DNA from: a virus | IMG/VR virus record: IMGVR_UViG_3300032299_000709 | Span: 1 to 53,927 of that record | Reading direction: 5' to 3' (one strand) | DNA: 53,927 nucleotides | The notes under the pieces: generated by a model | Seen by the model: the letters and a program-made list of their open reading frames with translations, nothing else | What the model was told of the DNA's origin: nothing | Database searches by the model: none | Shown: positions 3,276-19,923 of the stretch, piece after piece | How positions within the stretch are numbered: the stretch's first letter is position 1 | How the letters are laid out: the number at the start of each line of letters is the position of its first letter | Translations under genes and position numbers: made by a program

Positions 3276-4572
3276 ACCGGCGCAGGCCGTGACGATTCAA
3301 AGGATGGTGGACGAGACCTACCAGCTGATTGCGCTTCGCATGGGTGCAGGAAAAACGGTGGCAACCCTGACCGCGGTTGAGCAGCTGGGGATAAAGACTT
3401 TGGTGGTGGCGCCTAAGCGGGTCGCAGAGCTCGTGTGGCACACGGAAGCGGCTAAGTGGGACCACCTATCCAACTTGCGGGTTTCAAAGGTGCTGGGGCC
3501 CGTTAAGCAGCGAATGGAGGGGTTGTTGAGTGAGGCCGACGTTTACGTGATCAACCGGGAAAACTTTACTTGGCTGGTGGCCTTGGTCAAAGAGAGCAAG
3601 CAGCCTTGGCCTTTTCAATGCGTGGTGATAGACGAGAACAGGGGTTTCAAGGACCGGGCCAGCAAGGCGTGGCAGGCATTGAAGTCGGTCCGCGGTCAGA
3701 TTCAGAAGCTGTACATCCTTACAGGCACGCCAGATCCCAACGGCGACTTGTTGGACCTGTGGGCCCAAATCAGCATCATGGACGGCGGCAAGAGACTGGG
3801 CACCGGGATCACCAAATACCGAGACAAGTGGTACGTGCCAGACAAGCGCAACGGCCAAACGATTTACAGCTGGAAGCTCAGGAAGGGTGCAAGGCAAGAG
3901 ATCCAAGAGGCGGTGAGGGACGTGATGGTCAGCGTGGACAGCGGCGTTGAGATGCCAGAGCGCATCGACAACGTGGTCCAAGTGACGTTTGACATGAAGC
4001 GATACCGGGACATGGAAGCAACCATGGTGAGCGGCAACGTGATGGCGGTTAACGCAGCGGTGCTGGCCGGCAAGCTGGGGCAGATGGCCAACGGTGCGGT
4101 GTACGACGACAACCGGTTGGTGCATCCGATACATGATGCCAAGCTGGATGCACTCGAAGAAATCTTGGATCAGGGCGAACCGGTTCTTTGCTTTACTGCT
4201 TACGTGCACGACATGGATCGGATCAAGGCAAGGTTCCCGGACGCGGTGCAGTTCGATGGCGAGGCCTCATTGGCCCGCTGGCAGGCCGGAGAGATCAAGT
4301 TGATGGTGATGCACCCAGCTAGTGGCGGACACGGCGTAGACGGCCTTCAGGTGGGCGGCAATGTGGCTGTTTGGTTTGGCCTGCCTTTTAGCTTGGACCT
4401 GTACGAGCAGGCCAATGCAAGGCTTCACAGGTCTGGACAAAAGAACGAGGTTGTTGTGCACCACCTTGTGTCCGTGGGCACGATCGACGAAAGAATCATG
4501 GCGGTGCTTGCAAGCAAGGGCAACATGCAGCAAGCATTAATCGACGCGGTCAACGAAGCAAAGGGGAAATGA
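3259..4572 (+). CDS. SNF2/DEAD-like superfamily 2 helicase, 437 aa
   Basis: ATP-dependent DNA translocase. Motifs in order: Walker A RMGAGKTVA (27-35), the DExx box as VIDENRGFK (123-131, an unusual DENR rather than DEAH), motif III LTGTPDPNG (154-162) and motif VI QANARLHRSGQ (384-394) with the arginine finger residues. This minimal SNF2 form is typical of phage replication modules next to VRR-NUC. The start lies inside the nuclease gene with GGAGAAGG upstream; the stop overlaps the next start (ATGATG, 4569-4574). It probably helps origin unwinding or replication-linked recombination. Confidence 0.88.
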   Translation: MKFSARPAQAVTIQRMVDETYQLIALRMGAGKTVATLTAVEQLGIKTLVVAPKRVAELVWHTEAAKWDHLSNLRVSKVLGPVKQRMEGLLSEADVYVINRENFTWLVALVKESKQPWPFQCVVIDENRGFKDRASKAWQALKSVRGQIQKLYILTGTPDPNGDLLDLWAQISIMDGGKRLGTGITKYRDKWYVPDKRNGQTIYSWKLRKGARQEIQEAVRDVMVSVDSGVEMPERIDNVVQVTFDMKRYRDMEATMVSGNVMAVNAAVLAGKLGQMANGAVYDDNRLVHPIHDAKLDALEEILDQGEPVLCFTAYVHDMDRIKARFPDAVQFDGEASLARWQAGEIKLMVMHPASGGHGVDGLQVGGNVAVWFGLPFSLDLYEQANARLHRSGQKNEVVVHHLVSVGTIDERIMAVLASKGNMQQALIDAVNEAKGK

Positions 4573-5030
4573 TGTTTAAAGAGCGAATCACAAAAGCGCA
4601 AGTGTCAAAGAATCTGGGCGAGGTTCCGACCAATGAGATTGGCGACATCGACTTGGTGAGAGCTTGTGGGATGGCCGGCGTAGGCAACCCGCTGGGGCTG
4701 GCTATTTGGCGGTGGCGATATGCGGGTGACACACGAGAAGTGTTTCGCATTGCAGAGGCTTTGATTGCGATGGGATATGAGGCACAGGTGGTCTACAACG
4801 TAATGCACCACTTGTCCAAGGACGTGTGTAGCGTGTGTCAAGGCAGGGGCTACAGCATTATCAAAGGCACGCCGGTTTTAAGCGATGAGATTTGTTTGGA
4901 TTGCAAGGGCGCAGGTCGCAAAGAACTAAAAGGCGAAGCAGAAACAAAATTGGCCGCTGAAATCACCCGCTTGGAGCAGGAGATCGCAGCGGCCATCATG
5001 AGGAAGTTAGCTAGGCAGATTGACTTCTGA
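4569..5030 (+). CDS. Protein with DnaJ-type CxxCxGxG zinc motifs; possible Q-like antiterminator
   Basis: A 153-residue protein. The first half is helical (LGLAIWRWRYAGD around 42-54). It then has two CxxCxGxG-like elements, C87SVC90QGRG and C109LDC112KGAG, which should bind one zinc ion, followed by a charged coiled tail. Some lambdoid Q-type antitermination proteins carry this zinc layout, so a late-gene regulator is possible. The link is structural analogy, not shown homology. It is the last gene of the rightward early operon and overlaps the convergent leftward HTH gene by 20 bases. Translation is coupled to the helicase gene by the ATGATG junction; ATG 4572 is an equally possible start. 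Confidence 0.6.
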   Translation: MMFKERITKAQVSKNLGEVPTNEIGDIDLVRACGMAGVGNPLGLAIWRWRYAGDTREVFRIAEALIAMGYEAQVVYNVMHHLSKDVCSVCQGRGYSIIKGTPVLSDEICLDCKGAGRKELKGEAETKLAAEITRLEQEIAAAIMRKLARQIDF

Positions 5031-7401: not shown

Positions 7402-7430
7402 TTGACCTCGAAATCTTGTTGGTTTATCCT
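7402..7430 (+). promoter_or_regulatory. Late promoter A
   Basis: -35 TTGACC (7402-7407), a 17-base spacer and -10 TATCCT (7425-7430). Transcription would begin near 7437, inside a hairpin. First of three like-built rightward promoters (others at 15378 and 32736). Drives the packaging and portal genes. Confidence 0.7.
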
Positions 7431-7432
7431 CT

Positions 7433-7502
7433 GCGTGCGCAGGTGCGCCCGCTTAAAGGCGAACAAACCCCTAAGAAGAGCCGTCAATTTGCACGGCTCT
7501 TT
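7433..7502 (+). promoter_or_regulatory. Leader A: GTGCGCCC hairpin followed by terminator-like hairpin
   Basis: Hairpin 1 is GCGTGCGC-AGGT-GCGCCCGC (7433-7452, one mismatch) and contains the shared GTGCGCCC (7443-7450). Hairpin 2 is AAGAGCCGT-N8-ACGGCTCTT (7476-7501), ending in a short T-run like a weak intrinsic terminator. The Shine-Dalgarno TTGGAG of the first late gene follows. The same order is found in leaders B and C. Confidence 0.65.
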
Positions 7503-7519
7503 GCCTATTTGGAGCCTTC

Positions 7520-7762
7520 ATGGCCAAGACAATTACTATCGAAATGGCTGACGACGGCACGGTCATGGTTTCAACCAGTGAGGGCGGCGAGCCTTACATG
7601 TGCGAAAGCATCGCTGAGTGTCGTCAATACGTGGACAATATGCTGGCTGAAGAAGCCGGAGAAGGTCCGCAAGAGCAATCCATGGAAGGCCCCGAGGAGT
7701 ACGGCCAGATGTGGAACGAAGAAGCGGCCAGCCGCAAACCCCAACCGGGCCTGATGGCCTAA
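7520..7762 (+). CDS. Small acidic hypothetical protein, 80 aa
   Basis: First gene of the late operon, with TTGGAGCC before ATG 7520. It opens with a beta-like MAKTITIEMADDGTVMVSTS and ends in an acidic, Glu/Gly/Pro-rich tail. No membrane segment or known motif. Small proteins of this type often precede the terminase genes in related phages; function unknown. Confidence 0.75.
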   Translation: MAKTITIEMADDGTVMVSTSEGGEPYMCESIAECRQYVDNMLAEEAGEGPQEQSMEGPEEYGQMWNEEAASRKPQPGLMA

Positions 7763-7778
7763 CCTCAAGGAGCTACAC

Positions 7779-8033
7779 ATGCAAGACTACTCAAACCCAG
7801 AATCACGTAACAAGATGCGCGCAGCAGGCGGCATGACAGGCAACGCGGCCAAGATGCCCGGCGCTGCTATTGGCGGCGGCGGCAACCAGACGCAAGGCGC
7901 TGGCGAGATCCCCGGCAAAGTGTCCGTGCCCCTGCCCGGCACAAACGCTACGCAGCCCGCGTTCAAAAAAGAAGGCGGCGCGGTCAAGGCACCTGTTGGC
8001 TTCAACAACGGCATCATCAACGGAATGATCTAA
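7779..8033 (+). CDS. Small Gly/Ala-rich hypothetical protein, 84 aa
   Basis: ATG 7779 after AAGGAGCTACAC. A disordered Gly/Ala/Pro-rich sequence (GAAIGGGGNQTQGAGEIPG). Its stop overlaps the next start by one base (TAATG, 8031-8035). Possibly a minor structural or assembly protein; nothing more can be said. Confidence 0.7.
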   Translation: MQDYSNPESRNKMRAAGGMTGNAAKMPGAAIGGGGNQTQGAGEIPGKVSVPLPGTNATQPAFKKEGGAVKAPVGFNNGIINGMI

Positions 8034-8212
8034 TGGCCAAGCCCGGCTTGTACGCCAACATCCAAGCCAAGAGGGCACGCATAGCCTCTGGCTCGGGTGA
8101 ACGCATGCGCCAGCCCGGCGAAAAGGGTGCACCTACCAAGGCTGACTTTGTCGAGTCGGCCAAGACGGCCAAGCCGGCCAAGGCTGGCATCATTCGAGGG
8201 GCGATGAAATGA
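8033..8212 (+). CDS. Small basic hypothetical protein, 59 aa
   Basis: ATG 8033 overlaps the preceding TAA, and the stop overlaps the next ATG (ATGA, 8209-8212). The sequence starts MAKPGLYANIQAKRARIASG and includes GERMRQPGEKGAPT, a layout I recognise from many phage genomes just before terminase. Very basic, probably nucleic-acid associated or disordered. Function unknown. Confidence 0.75.
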   Translation: MAKPGLYANIQAKRARIASGSGERMRQPGEKGAPTKADFVESAKTAKPAKAGIIRGAMK

Positions 8213-8529
8213 AGAGCCCCGCTTGGCAACGCAAAGAAGGCAAGGCGCCATCAGGCGGCCTCAATGCCAAAGGCCGCGCCAGCGCAAAGGCTGAGGGGAT
8301 GAACCTCAAAGCCCCAGTCAAAGCCGGCGACAATCCTCGCCGCGCTTCCTTTTTGGCGCGCATGGGCAACATGCCCGGCCCTGAACGCAAGGACGGCGAG
8401 CCCACGCGATTGCTGCTAAGTCTCAATGCTTGGGGTGCCAGCAGCAAAGCTGACGCCAAGGCAAAGGCCAAAGCGATCAGCGCGCGCAACGAAGGCCTTG
8501 TGCGGGGAGCAATGAAAAATGGCAAGTAG
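8209..8529 (+). CDS. DUF6321-like basic protein, 106 aa
   Basis: Begins MKSPAWQRKEGKAPSGGLN and contains RASAKAEGMNLKAPV and NPRRASFLARMGNMPGPE, a well-conserved phage family resembling DUF6321. It is strongly basic. The coupled position between small late genes and the terminase suggests a role at packaging, but the biochemical function is unknown. It overlaps the next gene by 11 bases. Confidence 0.8.
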   Translation: MKSPAWQRKEGKAPSGGLNAKGRASAKAEGMNLKAPVKAGDNPRRASFLARMGNMPGPERKDGEPTRLLLSLNAWGASSKADAKAKAKAISARNEGLVRGAMKNGK

Positions 8530-8983
8530 AAGACTTCCAAGTCGCAACGCCGACTTAGCCGGGGCGCCACCAAAGCTGGCGACCATGGACGATTTGGCGA
8601 TACCGACCGCGGCCAAGACAGGCCGCGCACACCCAGTGAGCAAGAGCGCCAGCACGAGCAAGGCACCGCATCGAATCAACCTCCGAGCTGTTGCAGAGGC
8701 CTGCATCGAAGAGGGACTCGATCCCGCCGTTGAGATCGCCAAGGCCTTGAAGGCCACGATCCCGATGATGCGCAGTGGCCAGCCAGTGCTTGACTCTGAC
8801 GGCAAGAACATCATGGTTCCGCTGCTTGACGTTGACACGCGCATGCGAACGCTCAATGAGTTTCTGCAATACACGCAACCAAAGCTGAAAAGCGTTGAGG
8901 TCAAGATGTCCGGCACGCTGGACCTGACCAGTGAGCAGCTGGACAATCGGTTGAGCATGCTGCTTGCAAAGGCTACTAGATGA
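8519..8983 (+). CDS. Putative terminase small subunit, 154 aa
   Basis: Called by position directly before the large terminase (ATGA overlap, 8980-8983) and by size. The N-terminus is basic and disordered; a helical region LRAVAEACIEEGLDPAVEIA (about 60-79) precedes a segment on RMRTLNEFLQYTQPKLKSVE and an oligomerisation-like tail. No clear HTH signature, so family membership is inferred. It would bind pac/cos DNA and load TerL. Confidence 0.55.
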   Translation: MASRRLPSRNADLAGAPPKLATMDDLAIPTAAKTGRAHPVSKSASTSKAPHRINLRAVAEACIEEGLDPAVEIAKALKATIPMMRSGQPVLDSDGKNIMVPLLDVDTRMRTLNEFLQYTQPKLKSVEVKMSGTLDLTSEQLDNRLSMLLAKATR

Positions 8984-10449
8984 CCCAACTTGGCCGCATA
9001 GACACTACGCTGCTAAACGACGACGAGAAGCGAGAGCTGTACGAGCTGTTGCGCCTGAAAGACATTCGGGCCAAACGCAATCGACTGGCGACCTATGCGC
9101 CGTACAAGAAGCAGATTGAGTTTCACAATGCCGGCGCTAACTTCCGTGAGCGCTTGTTCATGGCAGGCAACCAGCTTGGCAAGACGTGGGCCGGGGCCTT
9201 TGAGGTCGCGATGCACGCGACAGGCCGCTACCCATCGTGGTGGAAGGGCAAGCGGTACAACTACGCTATCCGGTGCATGGTTGGATCCGAATCGGCCGAG
9301 CTGACTCGCAAGGGTATTCAGCGCTTGCTGCTCGGACCCCCAGAGATGCGCGAGGAGTGGGGCACAGGCGCCATTCCGTTTGCCTGTGTGCGCGACACCA
9401 GCATGAAGCAGGGCGTGCCCGATGCAGTCTCAAGCATTGTCGTGCGGCACGAATGCGGTGAAGACAGCGTGATCCAGTTCAACAGCTACGACCAAGGCCG
9501 CACCAAGTGGCAGGCCGACACTGTGGATCTAGTGTGGTTTGACGAAGAGCCACCGCTGCCGATTTACTCTGAAGGCTTGACGCGTACGCAGGCAACAGCC
9601 GGTCAGGTCTTTGTGACTTTTACGCCACTGCTCGGTATGTCCGAAGTGGTCAAGCGATTCTTGCTGGAGAAGCCGGCGTCATCGACCGTCACCAACATGA
9701 CGATCAGCGACGCCGAGCATTACACGCCCGAGCAAACTGAGGCGATCATTGCCAGCTATCCTGAGCACGAGCGCGAAGCCCGTGCCAAGGGCATTCCCAT
9801 TTTGGGATCTGGCCGTGTGTTTCCTGTGGTCGAGGAGGCGATCAAGATCCGGGCCTTCCCAATCCCGCCACACTGGGCGCGCATTGCGGCGATTGACTTC
9901 GGTGTCGATCACCCTACCGCCGTCGTATGGATGGCTTGGGACAAGGACAGCGATACGCTCTACGTGACTGACTGCTACAGACGCAGTGAGCCCGGCATTG
10001 CTGGCCACTCGATGGCCGTGCGTGCACGGGGCGAGTGGGTGCCGATGGCTTGGCCGCATGACGGCTTGCAGCGCGACAAGGGCGGCAGCGGTGAGCAGCT
10101 GGCCAAGCAGTACAAGGACCAAGGCTTAAACATGTTGGCCAACCGGGCCACGTTTGAGGATGGCAGCAACGGTGTCGAGGCCGGCTTGTCCGAGATGCTG
10201 ACACGCATGCAGACCATGCGCTTGCGTGTGTTCTCACATCTGGAAGACTGGTTTGAAGAATTTAGGCTGTACCACCGCAAAGACGGTATGGTCGTTAAAA
10301 TCAGCGATGACTTGATGTCGGCAACGCGATACGCCATGATGATGCGGCGCTTTGCCAAGACACAAGAAGAGGCCGAGGGCCGCATGCGTTCTAGCCGCAT
10401 GGCCCCGACGCTTGAGTTCAACGTATTTGACCCGGTCACCGGGTATTGA
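8980..10449 (+). CDS. terL: Terminase large subunit
   Basis: Packaging motor, 489 residues. ATPase: Walker A AGNQLGKT (62-69), Walker B VDLVWFDEE (182-190) and coupling motif FVTFTPLLG (211-219). The RNase H-like nuclease begins at RIAAIDFGVDHPTA (301-314) with catalytic D306, followed by acidic residues in YVTDCYR and WPHDG (D361). This is the Terminase_6 style. Complete, coupled to the preceding gene. It cuts concatemers and pumps DNA through the portal encoded downstream. Confidence 0.95.
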   Translation: MTQLGRIDTTLLNDDEKRELYELLRLKDIRAKRNRLATYAPYKKQIEFHNAGANFRERLFMAGNQLGKTWAGAFEVAMHATGRYPSWWKGKRYNYAIRCMVGSESAELTRKGIQRLLLGPPEMREEWGTGAIPFACVRDTSMKQGVPDAVSSIVVRHECGEDSVIQFNSYDQGRTKWQADTVDLVWFDEEPPLPIYSEGLTRTQATAGQVFVTFTPLLGMSEVVKRFLLEKPASSTVTNMTISDAEHYTPEQTEAIIASYPEHEREARAKGIPILGSGRVFPVVEEAIKIRAFPIPPHWARIAAIDFGVDHPTAVVWMAWDKDSDTLYVTDCYRRSEPGIAGHSMAVRARGEWVPMAWPHDGLQRDKGGSGEQLAKQYKDQGLNMLANRATFEDGSNGVEAGLSEMLTRMQTMRLRVFSHLEDWFEEFRLYHRKDGMVVKISDDLMSATRYAMMMRRFAKTQEEAEGRMRSSRMAPTLEFNVFDPVTGY

Positions 10450-10473
10450 TTAACCTTAACTGAGGAAATTCTC

Positions 10474-10839
10474 ATGGCTACTATTGCAGCAACAATCGAT
10501 CGCGACACAATCCCCGGCGCCGTACTGGCCACGTGGGCCGCTATGGCTACCGGCGACGTCGGCGCTGGCGTGCCTATCGCTTACTCAGCCGATTTGACCG
10601 GCCAAGCTACCGGCACCTTTGGCGGCGCTACGATTACGTGGCAAGGCTCCAATGACAACACAAACTGGCATCCTTTGACTCGACGCTCTGTCGGGACCGA
10701 TATGGCTTTCACTTCGGCCGCTGTGCACACCATGAATGAGAACCCAGCGTGGATTCGCCCCGCAGTGACCGGCGGCACAAGCGTTGCAATCAAAGCCATT
10801 GCGGCTATCCACGCACGCTACGCCAAAGCACCTTACTGA
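10474..10839 (+). CDS. Small structural-type protein, 121 aa
   Basis: ATG 10474 after TGAGGAAATTCTC. The sequence is beta-rich with Thr/Gly/Ala and a phrase ATITWQGSNDNTNWHPLTRR, resembling small jelly-roll or Ig-like virion surface proteins. It lies between terminase and portal, so a head decoration or accessory protein is a reasonable guess; no firm family. Confidence 0.65.
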   Translation: MATIAATIDRDTIPGAVLATWAAMATGDVGAGVPIAYSADLTGQATGTFGGATITWQGSNDNTNWHPLTRRSVGTDMAFTSAAVHTMNENPAWIRPAVTGGTSVAIKAIAAIHARYAKAPY

Positions 10840-10856
10840 GCTGAGGACTGAACCCC

Positions 10857-13085
10857 ATGCAAATCCAACCACAACAAATCGACGTCGAGGTCGAGTACGA
10901 AGATCCAGAAGAGCGGATGCGCAAGAAGGCGGAGAAGCTGCAAGCCTTTGGCTCTTCGCTGGGTGGCCAACGCGACGAATGGATTCGTTCGCGCGGCTCT
11001 TACGGCGTCGACAAACGTTGGATTGAAGACGAGGACCAGTACAACGGCAAGGACAACATTGCCAAAGCGGCCAGTCAGATGATGACCAGCGTGGAGCAGG
11101 GCTACCCTGTGACCACGCAGATGGCCAAGCCCCACCGCTCGACGGTGTTTATCGGCATGACGCGTCAAAAGACCAATGCCGCCGAGGCCCGCCTTGCAGA
11201 CATTTTGCTGCCGACCGACGACCGCAACTGGGGCATACAGCCCACGCCAAGCCCTGAGTTGATGGGCATGAGCAAAGACAACAAGATGGCCATGGACCAA
11301 CAGGGCCAGCCAGTCATGGGTGAGGACGGGCAACCAGTCCGCGTTCGTGACGTTGTCAAAGCTGTGCTTGAGATGGCCAACAAGAAGGCCTTGGCCATGC
11401 AGACCGAGATTGAAGATCAGCTGGTCGAATGCAACTACAACGGCGAGTTGCGCAAAATGATTCACGACGCCGCCGTGCTTGGCACTGGCGTGGTCAAGGG
11501 TCCAATCGTTACCAACCGCACACGCAAGGCGTGGCAGCCCATGACAGACAACATGGGCCAGACGGTCCATCAGATCGAGATCGTGCAAGAGATTAGCCCT
11601 GCTTCGTTCCGCGTTGACCCGCGCAACGTCTGGCCAGATCCCGGCTGCGGCGAAAACATTCACAACGGCAAAGGCATTTACGAGCGCGAACAGGTCACGG
11701 CCAAACAGATTCGCGACCTTGCCAAGCAGCCCGGCTTCATGAAAGACCAGCTGCGCAAAGTGCTGGAAGAAGGACCCAAGCAGTCCGCCACACTGCGCGA
11801 AATGACCGACGAAGACCAGCGCGACATGGCTCGTTTGACCTACGAGATGTGGACCTATTGGGGCGAAGTGGACCACGACGACCTTGAGTCTGCGGGCGTA
11901 TCCGTGGGTGAGAAGGACGAGCTGCGCAGCATCAGCGCGTGCGTCGTCATGATCAACAACACTGTGGTCAAGGCGTTCCTGAACCCACTGGAAGGCGGCG
12001 ACATACCCTACGACTTCTATGTCTGGGAAAAGGTTGCGGGCTCAATGTGGGGCTACGGCATCCCGTACCTCATGCGTTCACAACAGAAGGTCTTGAACGC
12101 TGCATGGCGCCAGATGATGGACAACGCCGGCGTATCCAGCGGGCCACAGATCGTCATCAAGCCCGGCGCTATCCAGCCAGCGGACAAGCAGTGGCAGCTA
12201 TCTGCCCGCAAGATTTGGTATGCAACCGACGACATTGACGACGTGCGCAAGGCGTTCTCGACTTTTGAGTTCAATTCACACCAAGCCGAGCTGGCAGGCA
12301 TCATCAAGATGGCCACCGAGCTGGCAGACGCTGAGACCGGCGTGCCTACTATCATGCAAGGCGAAAAGGGAGCAGCGCCAGACACTGTCGGTGGCATGCA
12401 AATGTTGATGAACAGCGCCAACGTGGTTTTGCGCAGGCTCGTTAAACAGTTTGATGACATGGTCACCAAGTCGCACATCCGTCGTTACTACGACTACAAC
12501 ATGATGTACAACGACGACGAAGAGATCAAGGGCGACTTCACAATCGACGCCCGTGGCTCAAGCGCGTTGGTGGTCCGTGACATCCAGAACCAATCGTTCT
12601 TAAACCTGCTTGCCGCTGGGGCCAACCCGGTCTACGGCATGTACCTCGACACACAGAAGCTATTCGAGAAGGCTTTGCAAGCCCAGCACATCGACCCAGC
12701 CGAAGTGTTCAAGCCAGAGGAAGAGATTGAGCAGATCAAAGAAATGCAGAAGCAAGCGGCTGCCGCAGGTCCACCACCCGACCCAGCAATGGCTGTGGCC
12801 CAAGTCCGCGCGCAGGCTGAAATGCAGAAAGTCCAATTGCAAAACCAAGGCGACTTGCAAGAGCTGCAAGTGCGGCAGCAGATCGCTGCGCAAGATGCCG
12901 ACCTGCACATTATGCAGCTGGAGATGACGCGCGAGATCGAGATGCTAAAGCTGTCCAACTCGCAAAACATCAGCCTTGAGAAGATCAAGGCTCAACTGGC
13001 CGACACCGCCATGAAGGAGCGCAGCCGTAAAGAGCTGTTTGCTGCTGAGCGCGATCTGGCTTTGAAGACTGGCTCAGGAATCTAA
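10857..13085 (+). CDS. Portal protein, P22-like
   Basis: 742 residues, close to the roughly 725 of P22 portal. It has the portal core with GYPVTTQMAKPHRSTVFIG, SPASFRVDPRNVWPDPGC and a region around MWGYGIPYLMRSQQK. The C-terminus, from about residue 620, is a long Gln/Ala-rich coiled coil like the P22 portal barrel. It forms the dodecameric channel for DNA at the head vertex. Position directly behind TerL supports the call. Intact. Confidence 0.88.
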   Translation: MQIQPQQIDVEVEYEDPEERMRKKAEKLQAFGSSLGGQRDEWIRSRGSYGVDKRWIEDEDQYNGKDNIAKAASQMMTSVEQGYPVTTQMAKPHRSTVFIGMTRQKTNAAEARLADILLPTDDRNWGIQPTPSPELMGMSKDNKMAMDQQGQPVMGEDGQPVRVRDVVKAVLEMANKKALAMQTEIEDQLVECNYNGELRKMIHDAAVLGTGVVKGPIVTNRTRKAWQPMTDNMGQTVHQIEIVQEISPASFRVDPRNVWPDPGCGENIHNGKGIYEREQVTAKQIRDLAKQPGFMKDQLRKVLEEGPKQSATLREMTDEDQRDMARLTYEMWTYWGEVDHDDLESAGVSVGEKDELRSISACVVMINNTVVKAFLNPLEGGDIPYDFYVWEKVAGSMWGYGIPYLMRSQQKVLNAAWRQMMDNAGVSSGPQIVIKPGAIQPADKQWQLSARKIWYATDDIDDVRKAFSTFEFNSHQAELAGIIKMATELADAETGVPTIMQGEKGAAPDTVGGMQMLMNSANVVLRRLVKQFDDMVTKSHIRRYYDYNMMYNDDEEIKGDFTIDARGSSALVVRDIQNQSFLNLLAAGANPVYGMYLDTQKLFEKALQAQHIDPAEVFKPEEEIEQIKEMQKQAAAAGPPPDPAMAVAQVRAQAEMQKVQLQNQGDLQELQVRQQIAAQDADLHIMQLEMTREIEMLKLSNSQNISLEKIKAQLADTAMKERSRKELFAAERDLALKTGSGI

Positions 13086-13097
13086 GGAGAACAAAAC

Positions 13098-14600
13098 ATG
13101 ACACCAAATGAAGCAGCCGAACTAATGCGGCGGTCTCAGGTCGGCGGTGTAAATACGTCAGAGTTTGCTGCTGGCGGTGGATACGATGCTGTAAAAAAAC
13201 TGGCTGAGTCAAACACTACAGGTTATCAGGCCGGCGTGCGAACCGTGGCGGACATGGCGAAGTACGCCCCTAACGATGCCGTCACAAGGTTTGAACCCGG
13301 CGGGCAAGGGGGGCTGGGCGAAACGTTTTATGCCAGCGGCAACTCTGCAACTGGCGGAACTGGAGCAGCAGCGGCAGCCGATTCGGCAGTGGGTTATACA
13401 GGCTTGACAGGTGCTAAGGCTAAAGAAGGCGTGGATCTAAAAACATTGGTAGAAAAGTCAACCGGACAGAAAATTGACAACTACTTTTACGACAAAAGCA
13501 ATCCAAATTACGCAACTAATCAAGCAGCGCTTTCCCGCGCCAGCAACGCCATGTATGGAGACGTTGGTGCCAACATAGACGCCCGCAATTGGACTGCCAT
13601 CATGGCAGCCAAGGATCCGCTTAAAGCTGCGGAGGATGCGCTTAAAGCCATGTACAACGACAAGGCGTATTTGGCTGCAAACACTGATCACGTACTAGCC
13701 CAAGGTTATTTGCCGGAACAAGCTGACCACACGTACAAGCAAATGGCCAGTCGTGTCGGTTCAACTTACGACGCCAACTGGTCTAAAGGTACAAAGTACG
13801 AGGGCAAGTACGATACAGCTGCCTATCTTAACAACGTAAAGAATTTAACTGGCGACGCCCTTGCAACCTACGAAAACAACCTTTGGTCCAAGTGGGGCGG
13901 CAATCCAAGGCTCAACACGTCCAAGGGCGTGGTCAATACGGGCACCAGCACGAATTCAGTCTTTACGCCGCCTACAACTCCCGGCCAAGTCACCGGAACA
14001 AGCAACACAACACCCGGCCAAGTCACCGGAACAAGCAACACAACACCCGGCAGCACGACCACCACGGGCAGCACGGCGGTTACTGGGGGCAGCACAGGCA
14101 GCACAGGCAGCACAGGCAGCACAGGCAACACAGGCAGCACAGGCATAATTGCCGGCGCCACAATGGGCAGCTTGCCTACAACAGCCACTTCGGTTGCTAA
14201 AGCCGACACGCAAACTTTGCCAACGCAACTTAATGCTCCAACGGCAACGGGCGGCGCGGGCCTATTGACAGGCGCCAACACACTTACCCCCGGGACGTTT
14301 AACATACCCAACACATCGACAGGCAATGTCAATAGCGGTGGTTTGATTTCGGGCGTGGCGCAACAACTGTCCACGCAGAACGCACAAGCTGGTTTGCCTA
14401 CAGGCGTGACGCCAAAGATTGGGGTAATGGGCTACAACACTGGCGGCGAGAGCATTGCAGCTTACAACCCTTACGGCTTTACCGGCGCAAACACCGCAAC
14501 GGGCAATTCACAAAACTGGTACAACTCTAAAACCGGCCAGCGCTACACGGCTCCCGCCGGTACGTGGGCTCCACCTAGTGCAGATTGGGCTAAAGTGTGA
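13098..14600 (+). CDS. Virion-associated protein with Gly/Ser/Thr repeat region, 500 aa
   Basis: Ribosome-binding site TAAGGAGAACAAAAC before ATG 13098, identical to that of the gene at 26728. Residues 1-270 look globular (helical, with a Tyr-rich segment); residues about 290-350 are low complexity, with two TPGQVTGTSNT units and a GST run; the tail is Gly/Thr/Asn-rich. Comparable proteins sit behind portal genes in related phages and are likely ejected or neck-associated. No enzymatic motif. Confidence 0.65.
   Translation: MTPNEAAELMRRSQVGGVNTSEFAAGGGYDAVKKLAESNTTGYQAGVRTVADMAKYAPNDAVTRFEPGGQGGLGETFYASGNSATGGTGAAAAADSAVGYTGLTGAKAKEGVDLKTLVEKSTGQKIDNYFYDKSNPNYATNQAALSRASNAMYGDVGANIDARNWTAIMAAKDPLKAAEDALKAMYNDKAYLAANTDHVLAQGYLPEQADHTYKQMASRVGSTYDANWSKGTKYEGKYDTAAYLNNVKNLTGDALATYENNLWSKWGGNPRLNTSKGVVNTGTSTNSVFTPPTTPGQVTGTSNTTPGQVTGTSNTTPGSTTTTGSTAVTGGSTGSTGSTGSTGNTGSTGIIAGATMGSLPTTATSVAKADTQTLPTQLNAPTATGGAGLLTGANTLTPGTFNIPNTSTGNVNSGGLISGVAQQLSTQNAQAGLPTGVTPKIGVMGYNTGGESIAAYNPYGFTGANTATGNSQNWYNSKTGQRYTAPAGTWAPPSADWAKV
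13981..14145 (+). repeat. In-frame 33-bp and 9-bp coding repeats
   Basis: Two nearly identical 33-bp units (13981-14013 and 14014-14046), then a run of 9-bp GGCAGCACA units (14088-14145) encoding Gly-Ser-Thr triplets. They are in frame within the 500-residue protein and mark a flexible linker. Such arrays change length easily. Confidence 0.85.
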
Positions 14601-15364
14601 GCGTTCTTGCCCGTGATCTTGACGCGTACAACCGCGCTTTGCAAGCCTACCAGCGAAAAGCGGGCGGCTATAACAAAAGCGTGGATCGGTACAACACGAG
14701 CTTTGTAAGGGACCCTAGTGGAAACCCTTATGTTTATAGCGGCGAGTACGACCCTGCGGGAGCTAACACCGGGCAGTTTTACACGGCAGATAAAGCATCT
14801 GGCCAGCTAACTGACGCTCAGGCGCCAGCGGAATATGCTGGGATGACGGCTAACACTGATAGCCCCGGGTACTCAATGCTTAGGCAAAATCCAATTGGCA
14901 AGGAAACAAAAATCTTTACCGGTGCTACCAAAGGCGGTGGCGGGACTGACAGGTGGGGTAGGCCAATTCCTGAGTATTTCTACCTGCCGGGAGTACCGGA
15001 CCCGGGAAACCCAAGGAACCCACCAAAAGCAAGGCAACTTGACGCCAGCAAGGTTCGCGTAGTTGAGAAGACGGAGGGCGCAAGAAGCGGAATGGCCGGC
15101 AGCGGCATTCCAACGTACACAATTGAGTACGACGTAAACAGCTTTCAAGACAGGCCGGCTGAGTGGACTGAAACCTTTGACAAGAAAGCACCAGATCCAA
15201 CCAAGGCTCAGTTAAACCAAGCCGGGCAAGCGTCGCTGGCCCAACAAGAAATGGGCCTCATTGGCGAGGTGCTTCAAAGTAGAGGGTTGAAAACCGGCAT
15301 AACTCGTAAACCCGGCAACGTGCGCGAAGAGGAAGTTACTGACGCCCAACGAAGAGATAAATGA
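14597..15364 (+). CDS. Hypothetical virion protein, 255 aa
   Basis: GTG start at 14597 overlaps the preceding stop (GTGA). The N-terminus is helical and Tyr/Arg-rich (AYNRALQAYQRKAGGYN), then a soluble region with several Gly/Pro turns and a charged tail. Coupling to the 500-residue gene suggests joint assembly into the particle. No known motif. Promoter B follows its stop. Confidence 0.6.
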   Translation: MSVLARDLDAYNRALQAYQRKAGGYNKSVDRYNTSFVRDPSGNPYVYSGEYDPAGANTGQFYTADKASGQLTDAQAPAEYAGMTANTDSPGYSMLRQNPIGKETKIFTGATKGGGGTDRWGRPIPEYFYLPGVPDPGNPRNPPKARQLDASKVRVVEKTEGARSGMAGSGIPTYTIEYDVNSFQDRPAEWTETFDKKAPDPTKAQLNQAGQASLAQQEMGLIGEVLQSRGLKTGITRKPGNVREEEVTDAQRRDK

Positions 15365-15377
15365 TAAAAAATAACTG

Positions 15378-15405
15378 TTGCATAAGAACCACGTTGTGTT
15401 ATAAA
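15378..15405 (+). promoter_or_regulatory. Late promoter B
   Basis: -35 TTGCAT (15378-15383), a 16-base spacer and -10 TATAAA (15400-15405). It lies in the gap after the 255-residue gene and before the scaffold and capsid genes, so capsid protein can be made at high level independently of promoter A. Confidence 0.7.
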
Positions 15406-15410
15406 ATTTC

Positions 15411-15465
15411 TTTGGGCGAAGTGCGCCCAAAATTTACCGAAGCCAGCCCTCTAGCTGGCTTTTTC
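15411..15465 (+). promoter_or_regulatory. Leader B: GTGCGCCC hairpin followed by terminator-like hairpin
   Basis: Hairpin 1 is an 8-bp perfect stem TTTGGGCG-AAGTG-CGCCCAAA (15411-15431) holding GTGCGCCC (15421-15428). Hairpin 2 is AGCCAGC-CCTCTA-GCTGGCT (15441-15460) with TTTTC behind it, a credible intrinsic terminator. The next ATG is only six bases after the stem, so structure and translation start are tightly linked. Confidence 0.7.
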
Positions 15466-15466: not shown

Positions 15467-15667
15467 ATGACTGATTACTCATCAAGCACATGGCATGTTT
15501 TGCGCAAGTGGGCGGAAGCCCAGCTTGAGCAGGCCAGAACAAAGAACGACGCTGTCGCGCTCTCCGACAACGAGACAGCTGCGTTGCGCGGTGAGATACG
15601 CATGCTAAAAAGATTTCTCGACTTGCCAAATGCGGCAACTCGGGGTGTGGTGGTCGAGCCGGATTAA
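15467..15667 (+). CDS. Small hypothetical protein, 66 aa
   Basis: ATG 15467 lies directly after the terminator-like hairpin of leader B, with no usual Shine-Dalgarno sequence. The product MTDYSSSTWHVLRKWAEAQL... is helical and charged and looks like a genuine phage protein that precedes scaffold genes. The start context suggests either very weak translation or RNA-structure-dependent initiation. Confidence 0.65.
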   Translation: MTDYSSSTWHVLRKWAEAQLEQARTKNDAVALSDNETAALRGEIRMLKRFLDLPNAATRGVVVEPD

Positions 15668-15690
15668 CGTCCCGCTTGGCCTTTTTAGTG

Positions 15691-15708
15691 GGCCGCCAAA
15701 AGACGGCC
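15691..15708 (+). promoter_or_regulatory. Short hairpin before the scaffold gene
   Basis: GGCCG-N8-CGGCC followed by TTTATTT and then the TTGGAGAG ribosome-binding site. It resembles hairpin 2 of leaders A to C but has no promoter and no GTGCGCCC hairpin. Possibly a weak attenuator or RNA stabiliser for the capsid message. Confidence 0.4.
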
Positions 15709-15727
15709 TTTATTTGGAGAGCAAAAA

Positions 15728-16618
15728 GTGGAAGAAAACCAACTGTCTTCGGAAGAAGTGCAAAACTTGTGGGATGAAGAGGCGTCAAAACTGGGTGCCG
15801 ACGGTGATACGTTCGCATCTGAGTCTTTAGCCGCTGCGCCGGAAACGCCGCAGGACTTTGATCTTGAGCAAGCACAAATCGAATCGGAACAGCCGGAAGA
15901 TCCCTTAGCCGGGCTATCTTTAACGGTCCGTGCCAAATTGGCGCAGATCGATGATTTAGCACAGGCAAATGCTCAACTGCTGCACCATGTCAAAACGACC
16001 GAAGGTCGCGTGGCAGCGATGCAACGAGAAGCTCAGCAGGCACGTCAAGCAGCAATGCAAGAAGCGCCTACGCAGACAGCTATCACCAGCGCCGTCAAGA
16101 ACCCAGAGAAGTGGGAGCAGCTCAAGCAAGATTTTCCCGAGTGGGCAGGAGCGATGGAGGAATACGTCGCATCAAAGGTGGGAGGCCAGCAGCAGCAGCA
16201 AGTTTTGACACCCGAACAGGTGGCAGGCTATGTGCAGCAGCAGGTCGCACAAACCCGCGCTGAGATGGGGCGCCTCATGGAAGAAGCACGAATTGAAGGT
16301 AAGTACGAGAACTGGCGCGATACGGTCAACACGACTGAATTTGCGCAATGGTTTGCCGTGCAGTCACCTGACACTCGGGCCCTCGCTGACAGCTCGGCAG
16401 CTAGAGACGCGATTAAGATGCTTGACTTGTTCAATACATCTAAATCGGTTTCGGCTACGGACATCAAGCAAGAGCGCGGAGCACGTCTCGCTGCCGCCGC
16501 GACAACTCGAACTGGCCAGACACCGCCGCCTAAAACACTTGGCGACATGTCACCAGCGGAACTGTGGAACTATGAAGCCAAGAAACGTGAGCGAGAGCTC
16601 AAAGAACGCGGTTATTAA
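15728..16618 (+). CDS. Putative scaffold protein, 296 aa
   Basis: GTG start 15728 with TTGGAGAG upstream. Very acidic N-terminus (MEENQLSSEEVQNLWDEEAS), central Gln-rich coiled coil (QREAQQARQAAMQEAPTQ and QQQQQ near 160), and a basic C-terminal tail ending KKRERELKERGY, the usual capsid-binding end of scaffolds. It lies immediately before the major capsid gene. Assigned by composition and position, as scaffolds diverge strongly. Confidence 0.75.
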   Translation: MEENQLSSEEVQNLWDEEASKLGADGDTFASESLAAAPETPQDFDLEQAQIESEQPEDPLAGLSLTVRAKLAQIDDLAQANAQLLHHVKTTEGRVAAMQREAQQARQAAMQEAPTQTAITSAVKNPEKWEQLKQDFPEWAGAMEEYVASKVGGQQQQQVLTPEQVAGYVQQQVAQTRAEMGRLMEEARIEGKYENWRDTVNTTEFAQWFAVQSPDTRALADSSAARDAIKMLDLFNTSKSVSATDIKQERGARLAAAATTRTGQTPPPKTLGDMSPAELWNYEAKKRERELKERGY

Positions 16619-16646
16619 CTCAATTTTCAAAAAAGGAAACTAGACC

Positions 16647-17705
16647 ATGTCTATTCAAAATTACGGCACCGTAGCATCGCGAAATCTAATCCGCGCTGCC
16701 CAAGGTATGCTTGAACACGCACAGCCCATCACTGTTTTGGGCGACTTCGGTACTCAACGTGAGATGCCACAGAATTCGACAGACACTTTGGTGTTCCGTC
16801 GTACTCTGCCTTTTGGCGCATCTACTGTTGGTACAACAATCGAGAACTCTTCTCGCTACGTTGGTACTCCTGACATCACCGCTTCCAACTTCGTGTTGGC
16901 TGAAGGTGTGACACCCAACGCAAACACAATCTCTTTCCAAGACGTGTCTGTTCAGTTGCAACAATATGGCGTGCTGTTCAAGTACTCCAGCAAAGTTGAG
17001 CAGCTGTATGAAGATGACATTCCCGGCGAAATGGTCAAGCTCACAGGCGAGACACTGGCTGAGGTGATGGAAATGGTTCGTTACGGTGTGTTGAAAGCCG
17101 GTTCTACTGTGATCTATGCAAACGGTTCTAGCCGCTCTGCAATCAACACAGCAATCAGCTTGAACGCAATCCGTAAAGCAGCTCGTACACTTGAGTCCAA
17201 CCGTTCACGCCGTGTGACCAGCCGTCTGGCTCCCGGTGTCAACTTCGGCACTCGCGCTGTGCAGCCTGCATACGTTATCTTCTGCCACACTGACGCTGTC
17301 AGCGACATCCGTAACTTGCCCGGTTTCACCCGCGTGGAAGAGTACGGTTCATTCAAGCCAATCCATGACCGCGAAATCGGCGCTTGCGAAGACTTCCGTT
17401 TCATCAGCTCACCCCTGTTGAAATCTTTCTTGGCTGCTGGTTCTGCAACCTTGAATGGCATGTTGTCTGTTGGCGCTGCTAACGTTGACGTGTATCCCTT
17501 CATCATCATTGGTGAAGACTGCTGGGGCCAAGTTGCTCTTAAGGGCATGTCTGCCATCAAGCCTGTGGTCCTCAAAGCCTCACAGACCAACCACGCCAAC
17601 CCATTGGGCCAATTTGGCTACGTGGGTGCTTCTACATGGTTCGCGACTGTGCGTTTGAACGACGCCTTCATGGCCCGTATCGAAGCCGGTGTGACCGCTC
17701 TGTAA
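16647..17705 (+). CDS. Major capsid protein, N4-gp56 family
   Basis: 352 residues. The sequence matches the N4-gp56 type HK97-fold capsid pattern: an N-terminal MSIQNYGTVASRNLIRAAQ, an E-loop region with FRRTLPFG and LAEGVTPNANTISFQDV, the A-domain phrase YVIFCHTDAVSDIRNLPGF, and the late VYPFIIIGEDCWGQV. Strong ribosome-binding site AAAAGGAAAC. Codon use is noticeably more biased than in neighbours (CGT, CTG, GGT), as expected for a highly expressed gene. A stable hairpin follows at 17713. Confidence 0.92.
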   Translation: MSIQNYGTVASRNLIRAAQGMLEHAQPITVLGDFGTQREMPQNSTDTLVFRRTLPFGASTVGTTIENSSRYVGTPDITASNFVLAEGVTPNANTISFQDVSVQLQQYGVLFKYSSKVEQLYEDDIPGEMVKLTGETLAEVMEMVRYGVLKAGSTVIYANGSSRSAINTAISLNAIRKAARTLESNRSRRVTSRLAPGVNFGTRAVQPAYVIFCHTDAVSDIRNLPGFTRVEEYGSFKPIHDREIGACEDFRFISSPLLKSFLAAGSATLNGMLSVGAANVDVYPFIIIGEDCWGQVALKGMSAIKPVVLKASQTNHANPLGQFGYVGASTWFATVRLNDAFMARIEAGVTAL

Positions 17706-17712
17706 TGGATTA

Positions 17713-17732
17713 GCTGGGACGCAAGTCCCAGC
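17713..17732 (+). terminator. Hairpin after the capsid gene
   Basis: A perfect 8-bp stem GCTGGGAC-GCAA-GTCCCAGC with a GNRA tetraloop, 7 bases after the capsid stop. Only GTCTTAACTT follows, so it is either a weak terminator or a 3' end protector that keeps the capsid part of the message abundant. Confidence 0.55.
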
Positions 17733-17755
17733 GTCTTAACTTAAAGGACATCACC

Positions 17756-18226
17756 ATGCAATCAAACTACTGGAAACTTCTAAACGAAGACCGTTTGAAC
17801 GATGTATCCGCACTGTCTGTCACGGCTCCTATCTTGGGTCCCGTTGCAAACATGACGCTTACTGCTACGACATCACTGACGGCAGCAGAAAGCGGTGAGA
17901 CATATTTCTTGTCTTCGGCTACTGAATTCGTAACTACTCTGCCCTTGCCTGCTGCGGGTTTGACATACACCTTCATTGTGACTGCGGCACCTTCTGGCGC
18001 CAGTTACACGATCGTGACCAACGGCAGTGCCAACATCATTAAAGGCCAAGCGTATCCCGCTTCTGGCGCTGCTGGTGATACAGGCACAGCCGATGACACC
18101 ATCTCTTTTGTAGATGGTTCGTCAGTTGCAGGCGATCGCGTAACGGTCATTAGTGACGGTACAAGCTGGTTTGCTTATGCGCATTGCGCAGTGGCAGCTG
18201 GCGTGACTTTCACCACAGCTTCTTAA
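17756..18226 (+). CDS. Putative head decoration protein, 156 aa
   Basis: Ribosome-binding site AAAGGACATCACC. After a short N-terminal arm the protein is beta-rich with Thr/Ser/Ala/Gly (TAAESGETYFLSSATEF, DRVTVISDGTSWFAYAHC), similar to small structural proteins behind capsid genes. Bias in codon choice resembles the capsid gene, which suggests high expression. No firm family; a decoration or fibre-like capsid protein is inferred. Confidence 0.6.
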   Translation: MQSNYWKLLNEDRLNDVSALSVTAPILGPVANMTLTATTSLTAAESGETYFLSSATEFVTTLPLPAAGLTYTFIVTAAPSGASYTIVTNGSANIIKGQAYPASGAAGDTGTADDTISFVDGSSVAGDRVTVISDGTSWFAYAHCAVAAGVTFTTAS

Positions 18227-18252
18227 TCAATCTTTTCCTAAAGGAATAAATC

Positions 18253-18690
18253 ATGTCATACAATATTGAACAAGCCAATAGTGGCTATCTCTCGCTAACC
18301 GCTGCCGGCTTGGCTGAAGGCACAAACGCCAACACCTTCAAGACTACAAACACCTTGACTTACACAAGCAATGGTATTTTTAAGTCTAAGGCTGCTACTG
18401 ACAACTTGACATTTACTGCCGGCACTGCTTTGGGTAATTCTCAGGCTTGCTTGTTTGGCGTGTGGATCACTTCTGGCGGCACCATATCGACCACACAAGG
18501 TCCTATCGTTGCTGCTGACGATCCATGTCCAGTGCCTTCACAGGTTACGGCTAACACAACTTTGGTCGGTTTGATCAAAGTAGTTACCAGCTCGTCTGCT
18601 ACGTTTACGCCCGGTAGTACCGACCTCAGCGCTACCGGTATCACTGATACCTTTAGCGACTGCATGGACATGCCCGGCTCAGCCCAGTAA
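18253..18690 (+). CDS. Structural-type protein, 145 aa
   Basis: ATG 18253 after AAAGGAATAAATC. Thr/Ser/Gly-rich beta sequence (NTFKTTNTLTYTSNGIFKSK, GVWITSGGTISTTQGP), few charged residues, compatible with a virion surface protein. It lies between the decoration-like gene and a strong intrinsic terminator, so it closes the capsid expression unit. Function inferred from context only. Confidence 0.6.
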   Translation: MSYNIEQANSGYLSLTAAGLAEGTNANTFKTTNTLTYTSNGIFKSKAATDNLTFTAGTALGNSQACLFGVWITSGGTISTTQGPIVAADDPCPVPSQVTANTTLVGLIKVVTSSSATFTPGSTDLSATGITDTFSDCMDMPGSAQ

Positions 18691-18718
18691 GTTGCCATCT
18701 CTCTTAACAGAGGGTTTT

Positions 18719-18747
18719 GCAGGTTGCCTTCGGGCAGCCTGCTTTTT
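18719..18747 (+). terminator. Intrinsic terminator after the capsid unit
   Basis: A 10-bp stem GCAGGTTGCC/GGCAGCCTGC (one G-U pair) around a TTCG tetraloop, followed by TTTTT. Best-formed rightward terminator in the window. It ends the block that starts at promoter B and would lower expression of the neck and tail genes relative to capsid. Confidence 0.85.
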
Positions 18748-18783
18748 GGCAAACCAGTTTTTTAAACCTAACGGAGAATGAAG

Positions 18784-19206
18784 ATGGCAAAAAAAGAAGT
18801 AGTCGCAGGCATTGAGATCCTAGACGACACACCAACAATTGATCCTGTTTCCCAAGTTGCAGACCTTCGCGAGCTTGCTGCAAGCGAAGCCTTTATGAAC
18901 GAGCTGGTTGAAGTTATGGTGCATTCCAGCACCGACGAAAACCAAGCCCCTCACGTAATTCTTAATTGCAACGGGACCAACCAGCCTATCCTGCGCGGCG
19001 TGCCAACACGCGTTCGTCGCAAGTATGTTGAGATCTTGGCACGTATGAAGGAAACCAAATACAGCCAAGTAACTCGCAACCCAGCAGCGCCTGATCAAAT
19101 CGACATGATTGCGCGCCACGGCTTGGCCTATCCTTTTGAAATGCTGGCCGACGAAAATCCTCGTGGCCGCGCATGGCTTCAAAACGTATTGGCTGAACCT
19201 GCTTAA
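18784..19206 (+). CDS. Hypothetical protein between capsid and neck genes, 140 aa
   Basis: ATG 18784 is favoured (GGAG seven bases upstream); an in-frame ATG at 18778 is too close to that site. It is acidic at the N-terminus, with a central basic segment (RGVPTRVRRKYVEILARMKE) and a tail NPRGRAWLQNVLAEPA. Conserved-looking, but no family is recognised. Position suggests a head completion or assembly role. Confidence 0.65.
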   Translation: MAKKEVVAGIEILDDTPTIDPVSQVADLRELAASEAFMNELVEVMVHSSTDENQAPHVILNCNGTNQPILRGVPTRVRRKYVEILARMKETKYSQVTRNPAAPDQIDMIARHGLAYPFEMLADENPRGRAWLQNVLAEPA

Positions 19207-19221
19207 ACACAGGGCGACCCA

Positions 19222-19914
19222 GTGAACTATCTCCAGCTTATCAACCGACTGCGCGTGGAGTGCGGCGTCTCTGGCGCCAGCACGCCGCTGATCACCGTTA
19301 CTGGTTTGACCGGCGAGTCTTACCGGATGGCAAGCTGGATCAATACTGCTTGGGTCGATGTGCAAACGGCCAAGGAAGATTGGCAGTGGATGCGTAATCC
19401 GGTGGAATTTAACACGGTTACGCAACAGCAAATTTACACCCCCACCCAAGCCGGTGTGGGGTCTACTTTTGGAAACTGGAAACGTGATAGTTGGCGCGCT
19501 TCGTCTGTAGGACAAAACTACAAAGACGAGCAGCTGATGAACTACATGGACTACACGACGTTCCGCAACCTGTACATGTACGGGAATATGCGCACAACGT
19601 ACGCGCGCCCTGTGGTTGTCACGGTTGACCCAGATAAGAACTTGGGTTTTGGCTCAATACCGGACCAGCCTTACGTCATTGTGGGTGAGTACTATGTTCA
19701 GCCAACAGAGTTTGCATTGGCCACTGATGCGCCGCCTACTGTGTTTCCTGACCGCTTTCAGATGATGATCGTCTACAGAGCGATGATGTTTTACGGCGGC
19801 TATGAATCAGCGCCAGAAGTCTATCAACGTGGTGAATTTGAATTTAAAAGGTTGATGAACCGATTGGACATCGACCAACTGCCAACAGTCGTCAGCGGCC
19901 CGCCGCTTGCATAA
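19222..19914 (+). CDS. Head-tail adaptor protein, 230 aa
   Basis: GTG start 19222 (MNYLQLINRLRVECGVSG). Helical N-terminus followed by SWINTAWVDVQTAKEDWQWM, a pattern I associate with phage adaptor/neck proteins that attach under the portal (P22 gp4-like role). Size and location after capsid and before the large neck/tail protein agree. Enzymatic motifs absent. Confidence 0.7.
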   Translation: MNYLQLINRLRVECGVSGASTPLITVTGLTGESYRMASWINTAWVDVQTAKEDWQWMRNPVEFNTVTQQQIYTPTQAGVGSTFGNWKRDSWRASSVGQNYKDEQLMNYMDYTTFRNLYMYGNMRTTYARPVVVTVDPDKNLGFGSIPDQPYVIVGEYYVQPTEFALATDAPPTVFPDRFQMMIVYRAMMFYGGYESAPEVYQRGEFEFKRLMNRLDIDQLPTVVSGPPLA

Positions 19915-19923
19915 GGCGCATAA

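What the first reader, a model, noticed from the sequence alone, without database searches (positions are those of the whole stretch)
7402..7502. Three late promoters share a two-hairpin leader with a GTGCGCCC core
At 7402-7502, 15378-15465 and 32736-32810 the same order occurs: sigma70-like promoter (TTGACC/TATCCT, TTGCAT/TATAAA, TTGACT/TAAAAT), then 13-16 bases later the 8-mer GTGCGCCC within a G+C-rich hairpin at the very 5' end of the RNA, then a terminator-like hairpin (T-rich behind it), then the first gene. The hairpin 1 sequence differs but its pairing is kept, for example TTTGGGCG/CGCCCAAA versus TGCGGG/CCCGCA, which suggests selection on RNA structure. This could be a put-like RNA antitermination element, an attenuator pair or a 5' stabiliser shared by all late transcripts. 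I know no described family with this build.
Basis: partly seen in the sequence, partly recalled or inferred. Interest (0 to 1): 0.78.

Follow-up and report, generated by a model that had tools for sequence, protein, structure and literature searches.

The report
Three Q-type late antitermination leaders
This phage starts each of its three blocks of late (particle-building) genes with the same short switch, a promoter, a built-in pause site and a stop signal just before the first gene, and it carries a protein related to phage lambda's Q that probably lets the host's RNA polymerase ignore the stop; using one such switch for three separate late operons, with no obvious DNA docking site for the protein, is unusual.

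Summary
At 7402, 15378 and 32736 a sigma70-like promoter is followed, 13-14 nt behind the -10, by a conserved core ending in TGCG(C/T)CC inside a 5' hairpin, then by an intrinsic terminator whose tail lies just before the first gene. Related viral contigs carry the same three modules before the same three late operons. In 50 unique cores the constant letters are G-10, T-3 G-2 Y-1 G+1, the E. coli consensus pause, at a fixed distance from the -10. All 74 unique leaders tested carry the terminator; three loci lacking the core lack the terminator too. The phage encodes, at 4569-5030, a divergent relative of phage lambda antiterminator Q: lambda Q is the top PDB hit by profile and by fold, and the gene lies upstream of leader 1 in all 19 loci that reach far enough. 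Best explanation: three lambda-Q-type late modules (pause plus tR'-like terminator), read through by Q-modified RNA polymerase; protein-dependent, not put-like. Unusual: three modules instead of one, very short leaders, no shared Q-binding element between -35 and -10, and a Q lacking lambda Q's C-terminal DNA-binding helix-turn-helix, so loading may depend on the start-site pause/hairpin core. Transcription and Q activity are untested.

The parts
7402..7430 (+). late promoter P1: -35 TTGACC (7402-7407), 17-nt spacer, -10 TATCCT (7425-7430)
   Evidence: read directly; CACTTGAC(C) conserved in the P1 leaders of relatives
7431..7452 (+). P1 start-site core and hairpin 1: G-10 = 7437 (also the expected +1), pause C7446|G7447, helix 7437-7440/7445-7448
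7477..7508 (+). P1 terminator-like hairpin AGAGCCGT..ACGGCTCT + TTTGCC (TTTTT in close relatives)
15378..15407 (+). late promoter P2: -35 TTGCAT (15378-15383), -10 TAAAAT (15402-15407)
15411..15431 (+). P2 core and hairpin 1: G-10 = 15415, pause C15424|G15425, stem GGGC 15414-15417 / GCCC 15425-15428
15440..15464 (+). P2 intrinsic terminator AAGCCAGC..GCTGGCTT + TTT, ending 2 nt before ATG 15467
32736..32763 (+). late promoter P3: -35 TTGACT (32736-32741), -10 TAAAAT (32758-32763)
32767..32787 (+). P3 core and hairpin 1: G-10 = 32771, pause C32780|G32781
32790..32818 (+). P3 terminator-like hairpin AAGCCGC..GCGGCTT + T-rich tail, before SD GGAG and ATG 32828
4569..5030 (+). lambda-Q-like antiterminator (153 aa): N-terminal motif GDIDLVRACGMAG, CxxCxGxG...CxxCxGxG zinc finger, single C-terminal helix, no C-terminal HTH
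7520..15364 (+). late operon 1 (small genes, terminase large subunit, portal)
15467..32704 (+). late operon 2 (putative scaffold, major capsid protein, tail genes, endolysin)
32828..47377 (+). late operon 3 (probable internal virion proteins, incl. 1964- and 1296-aa ORFs), followed by terminator 47408-47441

Best explanation
Each of the three late operons begins with a compact Q-type antitermination module. Host sigma70 RNA polymerase starts at the promoter, is held about 10-11 nt into the transcript by a consensus pause (G-10, T-3 G-2 Y-1 G+1) set at a fixed distance from the -10, and without help would stop at the intrinsic terminator that ends just before the first gene, so early transcripts are short dead ends. 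The early gene 4569-5030 makes a lambda-Q-like protein that joins the paused polymerase and turns it into a form that ignores the leader terminator and terminators further down. One protein thereby switches on all three late operons. The terminator also stops stray transcription from the operon upstream. Shown: conserved anatomy, the pause consensus and its fixed position, the terminator, coupled presence and loss of core and terminator, Q homology and gene position. Inferred: pausing, termination, Q loading, read-through and timing.
For: (1) Anchored on the -10, 50/50 unique cores have G-10, a pyrimidine at -1 and G+1, 49/50 G-2, 46/50 T-3, while neighbouring positions vary. G-10Y-1G+1 is the E. 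coli pause signal, and sigma70 pauses in the 10-15-nt register need only the -10 and start region (PMC7876045). (2) 74/74 unique leaders have a G+C-rich hairpin followed in most by a T tract, 8-33 nt behind the pause, just before the first gene. (3) Core and terminator occur together in every anchored leader; the three loci lacking the core (L027 P2, L084 and L087 P3) show no terminator either. (4) The same three modules before the same operons in at least nine related contigs. (5) Profile of the 153-aa family: top PDB hit is lambda Q, E = 0.0017; all 14 members hit PHROG 'anti-termination protein Q-like', best E = 2e-6; hhalign to lambda Q alone E = 3e-5; Foldseek top hit is lambda Q in the Q-loading complex 7ubn, probability 1.00. 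(6) The Q-like gene is present in 19/19 loci reaching at least 5 kb upstream of leader 1; the six without it have under 4.6 kb upstream, too little to tell. (7) More distant cultured phages with Q-like genes, Vibrio phage douglas 12A4 and Pseudoalteromonas phage Y3, also have a promoter, a short leader and a terminator before their late genes.
Against: No shared Q-binding element between -35 and -10 of the three promoters, and the Q-like protein lacks lambda Q's C-terminal HTH. The pause would be about 10-11 nt into the RNA, earlier than lambda's 16-17, and no -10-like element is seen behind the start site. The Foldseek match is moderate in TM-score (0.47; E = 0.012) and none of the scores alone is overwhelming. 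P3 of some relatives lacks a recognisable -35. No transcript data.
Confidence: 0.72

Rival explanations
1. put-like antitermination: the nascent 5' RNA with its hairpins binds RNA polymerase directly and makes it terminator-resistant without any phage protein.
For: Hairpin 1 at the predicted 5' end is conserved in pairing (more stable than shuffles 0/200); position just behind the promoter as for HK022 putL (PMC9378689).
Against: put is about 70 nt with two stem-loops, not known to be terminators; here the second hairpin has a T tract in most leaders. A few leaders (L035, L090) keep the pause letters with little or no hairpin 1. A Q-like gene is present. No Rfam match of note; no direct comparison with the put sequence was made.
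Confidence: 0.06
2. Attenuator or RNA-binding-protein switch: hairpin 1 is a binding site for a phage or host protein (boxB-like or repressor-like) that controls termination at hairpin 2 or translation of the first gene.
For: Hairpin with a constant 3' loop side (TGC) and a changing stem.
Against: Hairpins 1 and 2 do not overlap, so no exclusive refolding is evident; stem sequence and register vary within one genome; the fixed distance to the -10 suggests action at the start of transcription.
Confidence: 0.1
3. Insulator plus stabiliser: the terminator stops transcription from the operon upstream and is a leaky terminator for the late promoter; hairpin 1 merely protects the 5' end.
For: P2 and P3 follow directly on an upstream gene; the terminator lies behind, not before, the promoter.
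Against: A pure insulator would be placed before the promoter; P1 faces divergent genes; does not explain invariant G-10/T-3/G-2/Y-1/G+1 or the joint loss of core and terminator.
Confidence: 0.1

Closest known systems
Lambdoid Q-dependent late antitermination (lambda pR'/tR', phage 21, phage 82)
   Same: Sigma70-type promoter before late genes, promoter-proximal pause signal, intrinsic terminator in the leader, Q-family gene in the early region upstream (PMC6606751, PMC7171158).
   Different: Three modules per genome instead of one pR' (single pR' is own knowledge); pause about 16-17 nt behind the -10 end (22 in lambda) without a -10-like element; short leaders; hairpin around the pause; no shared QBE found; Q without the C-terminal HTH.
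AlpA antiterminator of Pseudomonas aeruginosa
   Same: One antiterminator serves more than one promoter (alpB and PA0807), with intrinsic terminators starting 26-54 nt behind the start site (PMC7969949).
   Different: No homology of AlpA to Q is reported; the AlpA element lies between -10 and -35; chromosomal programmed-death genes, not a late regulon.
GafYZ of the Caulobacter gene transfer agent
   Same: Anti-terminator needed to express a phage-like structural gene cluster (PMC11150451).
   Different: Single cluster promoter for GafZ, no similarity of GafZ to Q.
HK022 put RNA
   Same: Promoter-proximal RNA hairpins in a phage leader (PMC9378689).
   Different: Early genes, no protein needed, hairpin 2 is not a terminator.

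Membership tests
lambda Q protein family | Sequence/profile similarity to lambda Q including N-terminal GMA motif and paired CxxCxGxG zinc finger | tested here: met
lambda Q protein family | Predicted fold matches lambda Q | tested here: met
   Foldseek top hit 7ubn_Q, probability 1.00, E = 0.012, TM 0.47; model pLDDT 77
lambda Q protein family | C-terminal helix-turn-helix (helices 5-6) thought to bind the QBE | tested here: not met
   protein ends about 36 residues after the zinc finger with a single helix; location of the HTH in lambda Q inferred from PMC7171158
lambda Q protein family | Curated Pfam lambda-Q model (PF03589) above cut-off | tested here: not met
   no PF03589 match for any of 14 members
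Q-type late promoter module (qut + tR') | Sigma70 promoter before late genes | tested here: met
Q-type late promoter module (qut + tR') | Promoter-proximal pause sequence | tested here: met
   sequence consensus only, 50/50 G-10 Y-1 G+1; pausing itself not tested
Q-type late promoter module (qut + tR') | -10-like element in the transcribed region | tested here: not met
   no -10-like hexamer at the required distance on inspection; 10-15-nt register pauses do not need one
Q-type late promoter module (qut + tR') | Q-binding element between -35 and -10 | tested here: inconclusive
   no sequence shared by the three promoters beyond the -35 region; element unknown for this Q
Q-type late promoter module (qut + tR') | Intrinsic terminator in the leader before the first late gene | tested here: met
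Q-type late promoter module (qut + tR') | Q-dependent read-through | not testable with these tools
   needs in vitro transcription or RNA-seq
HK022 put | About 70-nt RNA of two stem-loops that are not terminators | tested here: not met
   second hairpin terminator-like with T tract in most leaders
HK022 put | Acts without any phage protein | not testable with these tools
   a Q-like gene is present, but protein independence needs an assay

The most novel reading that the evidence does not exclude
A lambda-Q-type antiterminator that has lost the DNA-binding helix-turn-helix and is loaded not through a DNA element between -35 and -10 but through the start-site core itself: an early pause plus a 5'-terminal nascent RNA (or DNA) hairpin, which lets one protein serve three separate late promoters. 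That would be a mixed mode between Q (pause-dependent) and N/put (RNA-dependent) antitermination.
Probability: 0.3. Interest if true: 0.78.

Novelty: new variant of a known kind. Interest (0 to 1): 0.62.

Why it matters
It extends Q control from a single late promoter to a three-operon late regulon in a podophage-like group known from environmental contigs, with leaders of minimal size. It makes an open question testable: which parts of a Q late promoter are really needed, since here only the pause, a small hairpin and the terminator are constant and the DNA-binding half of Q is missing. A Q relative with two CxxCxGxG motifs, annotated as DnaJ in a related cultured phage, suggests such regulators are overlooked.

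Tried and rejected
Count of the 8-mer alone: not above chance. Rfam, gathering and permissive: nothing of note. N4-type virion RNA polymerase with hairpin promoters: considered; no polymerase domain found in the 1964- and 1296-aa proteins and clear -35/-10 elements are present. DNA operator for a dimeric repressor: disfavoured because the three sites in one genome differ in the stem and the loop is asymmetric. boxA/boxB (N-type) site: no boxA-like sequence seen in all three leaders (reading). Infernal model of the whole leader: not built, because MAFFT put terminators and hairpin 1 in different registers; a fixed pattern was used instead. Shared QBE by same-genome versus cross-genome identity: no signal. 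Hairpin 1 covariation within a promoter class is weak (P1 2/200, P2 10/200, P3 200/200 swaps at least as stable), so pairing is not the main argument. Prophage-like relatives in Ensifer, Azospirillum, Marinobacter and Nitrosomonas: no module in the loci held, and no Q of this family in the Azospirillum, Marinobacter and Nitrosomonas genomes searched.

Full report
What is there. The window is a 53.9-kb IMG/VR virus record with P22-like terminase, a podovirus-type portal/head-tail adaptor and capsid genes. Late genes lie on the + strand in three blocks, 7520-15364, 15467-32704 and 32828-47377. Each has a sigma70-like promoter, then a G+C-rich 5' hairpin with GTGCGCCC, then a terminator-like hairpin and the start codon of the first gene. 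The 8-mer count is not above chance, but the composite pattern hits only these three places in the window.

Relatives. A terminase search returned 80 related contigs and a search with the first gene behind leader 3 gave more. Reading the DNA upstream of the homologous first genes gave 85 anchored leaders (seven were anchored by hand). A strict pattern scan of 14 longer contigs found two to three modules in most, at the spacing seen here, for example 7416, 13861 and 32453 in a distant 62.9-kb contig; two of the 32 hits (L199, L201) look like chance and the reversed control pattern gave 8. Together with modules whose letters differ from the strict pattern, at least nine contigs carry all three.

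What is constant. With cores anchored at the pause position, 50 unique sequences show G-10 50/50, G+1 50/50, pyrimidine at -1 50/50, G-2 49/50 and T-3 46/50, while -11, -7, -6, -5 and -4 vary freely. The anchoring score did not use G-10, so its invariance is independent of the anchoring; T-3 to G+1 were part of the score. This is the E. coli pause consensus G-10Y-1G+1 (PMC7876045). The distance from the -10 to T-3 is 13 nt in P1 and 14 in P2/P3 with few exceptions (13 in L077 and L090, 15 in L045 P2), which places the pause about 10-11 nt into the RNA. Sigma70-dependent pauses in the 10-15-nt register are known to depend on the -10 element and start region without a second -10-like element (PMC7876045). 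G-10 coincides with the expected start nucleotide, so part of its invariance could reflect start-site choice.

Hairpins. The 22-nt start segment folds better than shuffles that keep the pause letters (mean -6.95 against -3.65 kcal/mol, 0/200) and better than recombined halves over all leaders (0/200), but within a promoter class the effect is weak. Clade comparison shows compensated stems, GGGC/GCCC against GGAC/GTCC and GGGAC/GTCTC. A few leaders keep the pause letters with little or no hairpin (L035, L090). All 74 unique leaders have a terminator-like hairpin; 65 of them have at least five T in the 8-nt tail window. On the P2 alignment the structure is paired in 89% of cells, with nine double changes and covariation above all 500 shuffles.

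Core and terminator go together. All anchored leaders have both. L027 P2 has the promoter but neither core nor terminator, with the start codon right behind it; L084 and L087 lack core and terminator at P3. Joint loss argues that the core serves the terminator. The cases are few, two are related, and contig errors cannot be excluded.

The antiterminator gene. The last gene of the early + operon, 4569-5030, encodes 153 aa with an N-terminal GDIDLVRACGMAG motif and paired CxxCxGxG motifs. It hits Q-like PHROGs weakly alone but in all 14 members of its family (best 2e-6). A family profile finds lambda Q as top hit of the PDB (E = 0.0017); hhalign with lambda Q alone gives E = 3e-5; the AlphaFold model (pLDDT 77) has lambda Q in the Q-loading complex 7ubn as its best Foldseek match, probability 1.00, E = 0.012, all other hits at E of 1 or more. 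The gene is present in 19/19 loci reaching at least 5 kb upstream of leader 1. Curated Pfam models do not reach it.

Mechanism. The layout is that of a Q-type late module: promoter, proximal pause, close terminator, Q gene in the early region. The proposed sequence is initiation by host polymerase, pause, Q loading, read-through of the leader terminator and of downstream terminators such as the conserved hairpin at 18719-18742. The anatomy and homologies are shown; pausing, termination, loading and read-through are inferred.

Where it departs from the known. There are three modules rather than one. No element is shared between -35 and -10. The protein ends after the zinc finger with a single helix, so it lacks the C-terminal HTH that is thought to recognise the QBE in lambda Q (PMC7171158). 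Therefore the start-site core, the only feature shared by all three promoters apart from the -35/-10 hexamers, may itself direct loading. This is the most novel reading and is not established; the N-terminal helices could also hold an unrecognised DNA-binding motif.

Precedents. AlpA serves two promoters with terminators 26-54 nt behind the start (PMC7969949); GafZ acts at a single promoter (PMC11150451); put acts without protein (PMC9378689). Vibrio phage douglas 12A4 and Pseudoalteromonas phage Y3 carry Q-like proteins and a promoter, short leader and terminator before their late genes, without this exact core, and offer cultured systems for tests. Literature searches returned no paper describing a multi-promoter Q regulon, but subscription journals are mostly not covered.

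Noticed in passing
window 18691-18775: Conserved structured intergenic element in the capsid operon, present in 22 relatives besides the window: outer TTGCCA/TGGCAA pairing around two hairpins (second with UUCG loop and T tract), stems changing compensatorily. No Rfam match.
   Followed up: partly
L206 552-1136 (Pseudoalteromonas phage vB_Pun_Y3): Protein annotated 'molecular chaperone DnaJ' looks like a lambda-Q-type antiterminator with zinc finger and C-terminal HTH-like region, lying upstream of the late genes.
   Followed up: partly
L228 7857-8396 (Vibrio phage douglas 12A4): Hypothetical protein VPAG_00015 resembles the Q-like family; directly behind it lie TTGACT-17-TATGAT and a terminator abutting the next ATG.
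   Followed up: partly
window 15454-15467: In the P2 class the terminator ends immediately before the start codon and no Shine-Dalgarno sequence is visible, unlike P1 and P3 (GGAG).
   Followed up: no
window 31809-31830: Strong terminator on the minus strand (AGGGGAGTCTTCGGACTCCCCTTTTTT) inside the + strand late region near the end of operon 2.
   Followed up: no
window 5011-5418 (-): 135-aa minus-strand protein with an HTH_23-like domain convergent to the Q gene; possible early regulator.
   Followed up: no
window 51808-52572 (-): Ferredoxin-type auxiliary gene (phrog_3704, E = 6e-74).
   Followed up: no
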